A DNA stretch of 42,429 bases from a bacterium. GTDB lineage: Bacteria; CLD3; SB21. The stretch lies in NCBI GenBank assembly GCA_008933615.1, contig WBUR01000036.1, positions 1 to 42,429 of the forward strand, written 5' to 3'. Below the pieces are notes generated by a model. It made no database searches, was not told where the DNA came from, and saw only the letters and a list, made by a program, of their open reading frames with translations. Below, piece after piece: positions 7,934 through 8,879 of the stretch (within the stretch, counting starts at the first letter, position 1; each line of letters opens with the position of its first letter). The translations under genes and the position numbers were made by a program.

Positions 7934-8698
7934 TTACCGTTCAAATATCAAACTGCAGCACGTTAGAGCGCCTTCCGCTTTAGCTAGTTCCGATACATCA
8001 ACGATCCGTTGTTTGATCCCCGCTTCTTCCAATTTCCTCTGAGTTCGCGGAAATAAAGACGGATAAATTACCGTTCCATTTACCCATAGGGCATTCGCAG
8101 CATACGGTTCTGACGGATCAATATCGATGAATTTATTTGCAGAGAAATTTTCCGAATCAACCCAATTCCGGTTGATCAATAATGTCTGCTCAGCAATCTG
8201 CGTTACTGCAGACTTTAAATGAAGACAGCCTTTCACCGGTGCGTTTCTAACATCGTACCCGTATGGTTTAAGAAATTGCCGCATCTGTTCTGCCCCTGCT
8301 TTATTACTTCGTCCCGACATGCCGACATATACAGTTTTATCCACCCGTAGCACATCCCCGCCGTCAACCGTTCCCGGATCTGTGATATGAAACAATTGAC
8401 GGTACGAACTCAGCGCACGTGCGATTGAATCGGTTTCTGCCCTACGCGATTCCACGCCTGACCGCAGAATGATCGCAAGCTCATCCAATACAACCGCCGT
8501 ATCTTCTACGAATACCGAATCCGGCAGATCGGGTTCGGGAGGAAGTGTCTGCACTTCACAGCCTAATTCAGTAAGACACTGCTCATAAGAACGGTGCTGG
8601 GTTCTGGCCAGCGATACATCGATCGGCCGGCGTTTCAGGTGCGTCAACTCACAGTACGCGATTCGGTCACTTACGTTTCGTGTAATGGCTATCAACAT
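7934..8698 (-). CDS. ddaH: Dimethylarginine dimethylaminohydrolase-like amidinotransferase-fold enzyme
   Basis: A 254-residue guanidine-modifying enzyme of the DDAH family, which hydrolyses N-omega-methylated arginines to citrulline and a methylamine. Length matches bacterial DDAH. Visible active-site features are DSVFVEDTAVV (60-70, with the substrate-binding Glu/Asp pair), TVDGGDVL (110-117), GCLHLKSAV with His160, and the C-terminal LTCCSLIF in which one of Cys247/248 is the nucleophile. These residues separate it from arginine deiminase, which is about 400 residues long. Some relatives act on other guanidino compounds, so the physiological substrate is not proven. No clear ribosome binding site precedes the ATG. 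It lies downstream of the TerB-like gene on the same strand, but the palindromic element at 8728-8879 sits between them, 30 bp from this start. Confidence 0.88.
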   Translation of the reverse strand: MLIAITRNVSDRIAYCELTHLKRRPIDVSLARTQHRSYEQCLTELGCEVQTLPPEPDLPDSVFVEDTAVVLDELAIILRSGVESRRAETDSIARALSSYRQLFHITDPGTVDGGDVLRVDKTVYVGMSGRSNKAGAEQMRQFLKPYGYDVRNAPVKGCLHLKSAVTQIAEQTLLINRNWVDSENFSANKFIDIDPSEPYAANALWVNGTVIYPSLFPRTQRKLEEAGIKQRIVDVSELAKAEGALTCCSLIFER

Positions 8699-8727: not shown

Positions 8728-8879
8728 CATTTGCGTTTGTGCTTATCGGGTTTACTCACATACGTCATGGTGAGCGGAGTCGAACCATGACCAAGTTTAG
8801 TAAAATCAGTCTTCGACTGCGCTCAGACTGAAGGGTTCTTTCCCATCTGTGAGCCAACCCGATAAGCACATTTGCGTTT
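8728..8879. mobile_element. Miniature palindromic element with flanking direct repeats
   Basis: The core is 8739-8869. Its ends are 22-bp inverted repeats (8739-8760 and 8848-8869) beginning GTGCTTATCGGGTT, matching at 20 of 22 positions. The 11-base sequence CATTTGCGTTT occurs directly outside on both sides (8728-8738 and 8869-8879, with one base shared with the right end), as expected of a target duplication. Inside are two hairpins: TCATGGT/ACCATGA (8765-8771 and 8784-8790) and TCAGTCT/AGACTGA (8806-8812 and 8825-8831). Their 12-base loops are reverse complements except for one position. No protein is encoded. The right copy of the direct repeat touches the stop codon of the TerB-like gene, so the insertion left that gene intact. 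Confidence 0.75.

What the first reader, a model, noticed from the sequence alone, without database searches (positions are those of the whole stretch)
8728..8879. Miniature element with 22-bp inverted ends, direct-repeat flanks and two loop-complementary hairpins
The ends match at 20 of 22 positions, CATTTGCGTTT flanks both sides, and the two internal stem-loops have 12-base loops that are reverse complements except at one position. Such loops could pair in a cruciform or RNA kissing complex. The insertion abuts a stop codon and sits 30 bp before the DDAH start. Similar GAGC...GTCGAACCATGA-type intergenic repeats are common in bacterial genomes, but the full nested structure with flanking duplication points to a mobile, non-autonomous unit.
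Basis: seen in the sequence. Interest (0 to 1): 0.62.

Follow-up and report, generated by a model that had tools for sequence, protein, structure and literature searches.

The report
Tiny non-autonomous transposon carrying REP hairpins
It is one of about 40 copies of a 131-155 bp "hitch-hiker" jumping gene in this bacterium's genome; inside its transposon ends it carries a pair of short hairpins, and an RNA-guided insertion sequence has repeatedly landed in the loops of those hairpins.

Summary
Confirmed: a MITE at 8739-8869 (131 bp) with 22-bp inverted ends (20/22), flanked by a 10-bp duplication (ATTTGCGTTT, 8729-8738 and 8870-8879). The genome holds about 30 complete copies at different sites, nearly all with their own 9-10-bp duplications, all intergenic. 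Empty sites exist: G002 lacks this insertion, and a G001-only copy has its empty site in G000.

The inside is an inverted pair of REP-like hairpins whose stems covary across copies. The 12-nt loops are complementary because they are inverted copies of one core; loop-loop pairing shows no covariation and is lost in most copies, so a conserved kissing complex is not supported. No mobilising transposase was found.

Beyond the finding: at least nine copies in G000 are broken at the same point of a hairpin loop by IS1111/IS110-type elements. The IS 3' non-coding region carries a guide (TCGACTTCG) matching that loop; a second IS with another guide sits in another repeat. The same transposon ends enclose a different REP pair in a Pseudomonadota genome. 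Two insertions shared with G001 have different hairpin loops. New variant of a known kind.

The parts
8729..8738 (.). left target-site duplication ATTTGCGTTT
   Evidence: identical to 8870-8879; matches 9-10-bp duplications at other copies
8739..8760 (+). left terminal inverted repeat GTGCTTATCGGGTTTACTCACA
8764..8791 (+). hairpin 1 GTCATGGT-[GAGCGGAGTCGA]-ACCATGAC (REP-like, CGTC at its 5' edge); loop 8772-8783
   Evidence: stem covaries: two-sided changes in L076, L063, L109
8806..8831 (+). hairpin 2 TCAGTCT-[TCGACTGCGCTC]-AGACTGA, inverted copy of the same core; loop 8813-8824 is the site where IS1111-type elements interrupt other copies
   Evidence: stem covaries T-A/C-G in 11 copies; IS junctions
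8848..8869 (-). right terminal inverted repeat GTGCTTATCGGGTTGGCTCACA (read on the minus strand)
8870..8879 (.). right target-site duplication ATTTGCGTTT; 8879 is also the last base of the upstream gene's stop codon
8879..9295 (-). upstream co-directional gene, 138 aa, no Pfam or NCBIfam match
7934..8698 (-). downstream co-directional gene, dimethylarginine dimethylaminohydrolase (DDAH)/arginine-deiminase-type
   Evidence: PF02274 2.6e-8; NF045660 8.5e-65, below its curated cut-off

Best explanation
This is a copy of a non-autonomous, TIR-type transposon (a MITE) whose cargo is an inverted pair of REP-like hairpins. SHOWN by sequence: multi-copy dispersal, fixed ends, 9-10-bp AT-rich target duplications, empty sites, intergenic placement, stems kept by compensatory changes. 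INFERRED: a DDE-type transposase acting in trans binds GTGCTTATCGGGTT and inserts the unit with a 9-10-bp staggered cut at AT-rich targets. That transposase was not found. INFERRED: the intergenic position reflects purifying selection and tolerance of hairpins in untranslated RNA, rather than a specific regulatory job at DDAH. SHOWN by sequence, not by experiment: the hairpin loop is the landing site of IS1111-type insertion sequences. INFERRED: their seekRNA picks the loop by base pairing. The MITE therefore spreads both itself and target sites for a second transposon.
For: Own genome: 97 matches at E<=10 to the 152-bp query, about 40 of them substantial copies. Complete copies have 9-10-bp flanking duplications differing per site; mean agreement of left and right 10-mers is 8.2/10 in 45 copies from four genomes against 5.0 (maximum 5.6) in 2000 re-pairings. 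Empty sites: two G002 contigs have the two genes with a single target and no element; a G001-only insertion is empty in G000, with a 9-bp overlap at the junction. 0 of 45 copies lie inside an ORF although ORFs cover 81% of the loci. Hairpin stems: 98.3% of cells paired, 14 two-sided-change cells against 3.6 in shuffles, 0/500. IS junctions at one loop position; IS110 transposase joined to such a junction; guide match.
Against: No transposase with these ends was found: Pfam DDE_Tnp_1 gave none in G000-G002 and Transposase_mut none in G000, G001, G002, G004, G098; other transposase families were not tested. Multi-copy IS may be missing from these draft assemblies, as the IS1111 interior is from G000. 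The two copies of the duplication often differ at an outermost base, so 9 versus 10 bp is not settled. Transposition itself was not observed.
Confidence: 0.93

Rival explanations
1. The hairpin pair is an ordinary REP/BIME/REPIN moved by a tyrosine (RAYT/IS200-type) transposase, and the outer inverted repeat is only incidental flanking palindrome.
For: An inverted dimer of short palindromes is the REPIN layout (PMC3116915, PMC3733652). Y1 transposases exist in G000. REP dimers nested in longer palindromes are reported in A. variabilis and H. neapolitanus (PMC3733652).
Against: Every TCGACTNCGCTCA in G000 (28 of 28) lies inside a MITE copy, none free or beside a Y1 gene. The duplicated target flanks the outer ends, not the hairpins. 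Y1 transposition makes no 9-10-bp duplication (established knowledge). Loops are 12 nt or longer against 4-5 in CGTC REPs.
Confidence: 0.04
2. The element is kept because it works as an RNA device in the transcript between the 138-aa gene and DDAH (kissing loops, mRNA stability or attenuation).
For: Both strands fold far better than shuffles, z about -8. The element sits between two co-directional genes. Stems covary.
Against: A long near-perfect palindrome gives the same z-score on both strands and as DNA. No Rfam match. Loop-loop pairing not conserved. Copies sit beside many different genes. G002 lacks it at this locus. The one terminator-like hit is weak and within what shuffles give.
Confidence: 0.05
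3. For the interrupted copies: the junctions are assembly artefacts or a longer composite element, not IS1111 insertions guided to the loop.
For: All junctions lie near contig ends, and the IS interior is missing from G000.
Against: At the L019/L094 locus, G000 has the intact MITE and G001 the same MITE broken next to an IS110 gene. Two IS variants share the point. One insertion is in hairpin 1 in the opposite orientation. All 9 sit at TCGACTTCG against 13 of 38 intact loops, p=3.7e-4. Subterminal repeat offsets of 7 and 3 bp fit IS1111 (PMC11187229).
Confidence: 0.04

Closest known systems
Bacterial MITEs (e.g. NEMIS/Correia, RUP, ERIC, Nezha, MITEAba12)
   Same: 70-300 bp, 15-30-bp TIRs, no coding capacity, multi-copy, often next to genes, fold strongly; target duplications
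   Different: TIR sequence GTGCTTATCGGGTT not matched to a named family here; carries a REP-like hairpin pair; mobilising IS unknown
GTAG/CGTC-tagged REP dimers (PMC3733652)
   Same: Inverted pair of short palindromes; hairpin 1 has CGTC at its edge; dimers inside longer palindromes have been noted in two species
   Different: 12-nt or about 35-nt loops instead of 4-5; conserved loop with changing stems; never found outside the TIR unit in G000; moves with 9-10-bp duplications
ISPa11, ISPpu9, ISPpu10 (IS110/IS1111 family IS that insert in REPs; PMC1525189, PMC11187229)
   Same: Insertion into one point of a palindromic repeat; IS1111-type ends; guide segments in the 3' non-coding region (shown for ISPa11)
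   Different: Here the target is the loop of a hairpin that is itself cargo of a MITE, so the target is dispersed by another transposon

Membership tests
MITE | terminal inverted repeats | tested here: met
   20/22 in the window copy; 94.6% of TIR cells paired over 42 copies
MITE | target-site duplication that differs between copies | tested here: met
MITE | multi-copy, dispersed, no coding capacity | tested here: met
   131-155 bp with no gene inside
MITE | empty site in a relative | tested here: met
   G002 for the window copy; G000 for a G001-only copy
MITE | autonomous partner with the same ends | tested here: inconclusive
   none found; only two DDE families tested and assemblies are drafts
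CGTC/GTAG REP | unpaired CGTC or GTAG tag at one end | tested here: inconclusive
   CGTC at 8763-8766, but its GTC is paired; hairpin 2 has no such tag
CGTC/GTAG REP | CGTC REPs: loop 4-5 nt with 8-9-bp stem | tested here: not met
   loops 12 nt or about 35 nt
REPIN moved by RAYT | hairpins beside a RAYT gene, or free-standing | tested here: not met
   28/28 core matches are inside MITEs
IS1111 (the inserted IS) | DEDD transposase of the IS110 family | tested here: met
   PF01548 1.9e-12 over its cut-off; NF033542 3.2e-23, the fragment being below the NCBIfam cut-off
IS1111 (the inserted IS) | subterminal inverted repeats with 7-bp left and 3-bp right extensions | tested here: met
   AGACCTT|ATGTTAA... 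and ...ACAT|ACC, read from the junctions
IS1111 (the inserted IS) | 3' non-coding region with segments matching both target strands, top-strand complement first | tested here: met
   TCGACTTCG then CCTGAG (5 of 6); second IS: TGTCATTCTG then TTTCAGAA for its own target
IS1111 (the inserted IS) | seekRNA bound by transposase and needed for transposition | not testable with these tools
   needs an experiment

The most novel reading that the evidence does not exclude
One TIR transposon lineage acts as a shared vehicle for REP-type hairpin pairs across phyla (a GTAG-type pair in a Pseudomonadota genome, a CGTC-like pair here). This would explain how REPs without a dedicated transposase spread, while RNA-guided IS1111 elements follow the same loops as landing sites.
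Probability: 0.35. Interest if true: 0.68.

Novelty: new variant of a known kind. Interest (0 to 1): 0.5.

Why it matters
CGTC-type palindromic repeats are reported to lack a dedicated transposase, and how they move was left open (PMC3733652). Here a CGTC-like hairpin pair moves as cargo between transposon ends, with target duplications and empty sites, and the same ends carry a different REP pair in another phylum. The family also gives many natural target sites for an RNA-guided IS1111 element, with a candidate guide readable in the IS, so guide rules can be tested on natural insertions. As a single insertion upstream of DDAH it is ordinary.

Tried and rejected
Kissing loops as a conserved feature: rejected on covariation. 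Rfam family: none. Plasmid and phage records: only hairpin-length, weak matches. Viral contigs with these ends: none. Autonomous partner: unpaired TIR loci read for second ends and ORFs, nothing convincing; DDE_Tnp_1 and Transposase_mut absent in the genus. IS110 transposase in G000: none assembled; found in G001. Y1/RAYT link: genes present but no hairpin core near them. Literature search for the core sequence as text: one paper, on an unrelated subject.

Full report
WHAT IS THERE. The window holds a 131-bp element at 8739-8869 with ends GTGCTTATCGGGTT..CTCACA / TGTGAG..AACCCGATAAGCAC (20 of 22 paired) and a 10-bp direct repeat ATTTGCGTTT at 8729-8738 and 8870-8879. The right copy ends on the outer base of the upstream gene's stop codon (minus-strand TGA). 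Inside are two hairpins with 12-nt loops that are reverse complements at 11 of 12 positions.

IT IS A MOBILE FAMILY. The window's own genome G000 (3.77 Mb, 97 contigs) gives 97 matches at E<=10, about 40 of them substantial copies and many of the rest single ends. The 15-base end TGTGCTTATCGGGTT occurs 89 times with up to two mismatches, against 5 for the reversed control pattern. Copies fall in two loop forms, about 131 bp and about 154 bp. Flanks are AT-rich duplications of 9-10 bp that differ from copy to copy. In 45 copies from four genomes the left and right 10-mers agree at 8.2 positions on average against 5.0 after re-pairing. An outermost base often differs (T or C beside the left end, A or G beside the right), so the true duplication may be 9 bp with one base belonging to the element.

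EMPTY SITES AND KINSHIP. The phylum has only nine genomes held. The family is in three genomes of the genus and, diverged, in one other genus of the family; of 98 genomes searched, the only other match is hairpin 1 alone in a distant genome. At the window locus G002 has the same two genes with a single target and no element, on two contigs. The G002 target has diverged (ATCCACCAAAT against AAACGCAAAT), so this shows absence of the element and of a second copy rather than a letter-perfect empty site. G001 shares the insertion with the same duplication. A further case is a G001-only copy whose empty site is in G000, with a 9-bp overlap at the junction. All 45 copies lie between ORFs (34 between co-directional genes, 6 convergent, 5 divergent).

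THE HAIRPINS. Over 42 copies the two stems stay paired in 98.3% of cells, with 14 two-sided changes against 3.6 in shuffles. Eleven of these are one T-A/C-G difference in hairpin 2 that may go back to few events; three in hairpin 1 (L076, L063, L109) are separate. The TIR also covaries. Loop-loop pairing does not: it scores below shuffles, and three middle pairs fail in more than half of the copies, mainly those with the long loop. Single-strand folds are strong on both strands as RNA and as DNA, as any long palindrome would be; nothing matches Rfam.

LOOPS DIFFER AT SHARED INSERTIONS. At the window locus G000 has the short loop and G001 the long one, though G001's contig ends inside the element, so an assembly error is possible there. 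At L034 (G000) and L076 (G001) the same insertion, with the same private substitutions including TCGAGCC, has a long loop in one and a short loop in the other, and the stem changed on both sides (CATGG/CCATG to CAGGG/CCCTG). Short-tract gene conversion or template switching between copies would explain this; it was not tested further.

AN RNA-GUIDED IS USES THE LOOP. In G000 eight copies end at one point of the hairpin-2 loop (TTCGACTTCG|CT|CAGACTG), and one copy in hairpin 1 in the opposite orientation, where they meet IS sequence. At least two IS variants do this. In G001 the joined DNA encodes an IS110-family DEDD transposase, while G000 has that MITE intact at the same locus. The ends carry subterminal inverted repeats with a 7-bp left and 3-bp right extension, the IS1111 layout (PMC11187229). 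Downstream of the transposase gene one IS has TCGACTTCG followed by CCTGAG, matching the two sides of the loop target in the order reported for IS1111 seekRNAs. A second IS110 element in G001 (L111) sits in a different sequence, ATTCTTTC|AGAATGACA, and its non-coding region has TGTCATTCTG then TTTCAGAA; crossing guide and target drops the longest match from 9-10 to 7. Mononucleotide-shuffled regions reach the observed length in 11 and 8 of 1000 trials. All nine IS-broken loops in G000 have TCGACTTCG; 13 of 38 intact ones do (p=3.7e-4). The window copy has TCGACTGCG and TCGACTCCG, one mismatch each, and is intact.

SAME ENDS ELSEWHERE. One exact match to the 22-bp end pattern outside the MAG-300/MAG-301 records lies in a Pseudomonadota MAG. 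That genome has 30 such ends (up to one mismatch), and its complete elements have 8-10 of 10 matching flank bases and enclose a GTAG-type pair, GTAGGTTGGGCAAAGCGAAGC..GCCCAAC. Many of its other copies have one end only.

WHAT IS KNOWN. MITEs, REP dimers, REP dimers inside longer palindromes (PMC3733652) and IS110/IS1111 insertion into REPs (PMC1525189, PMC11187229) are all described. I did not find the combination in the papers searched, which is not proof of absence. The mobilising transposase remains unidentified.

Noticed in passing
L111 (G001:C421) 910-2007 and flanks: A full IS110-family element sits in ATTCTTTC|AGAATGACA, which looks like another interspersed repeat (a similar stretch is in L105), with a matching guide in its 3' non-coding region.
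   Followed up: partly
L034 969-1121 versus L076 1501-1630; L001 versus L096: Orthologous MITE insertions with different hairpin-1 loops (short/long) and, in one pair, a compensatory stem change.
   Followed up: partly
L126, L127, L128, L133, L137, L139, L141, L144, L147, L148 (G098): Copies with one TIR and the REP pair but no second TIR within 1.5 kb; most leave the shared sequence near CTACG(T/G)(C/G)(A/G)CT.
   Followed up: partly
L055, L060, L064 (G069, a genome of a distant group): Hairpin 1 (25 bp identical) occurs there paired with a related inverted hairpin but without these TIRs.
   Followed up: partly
ends of contigs C7, C11, C14, C18, C29, C30, C31, C42, C43, C44, C48, C49, C52, C53, C66, C69 of G000: Contigs break near IS1111 junctions inside MITE copies; no IS110 transposase was found in the G000 assembly.
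   Followed up: yes
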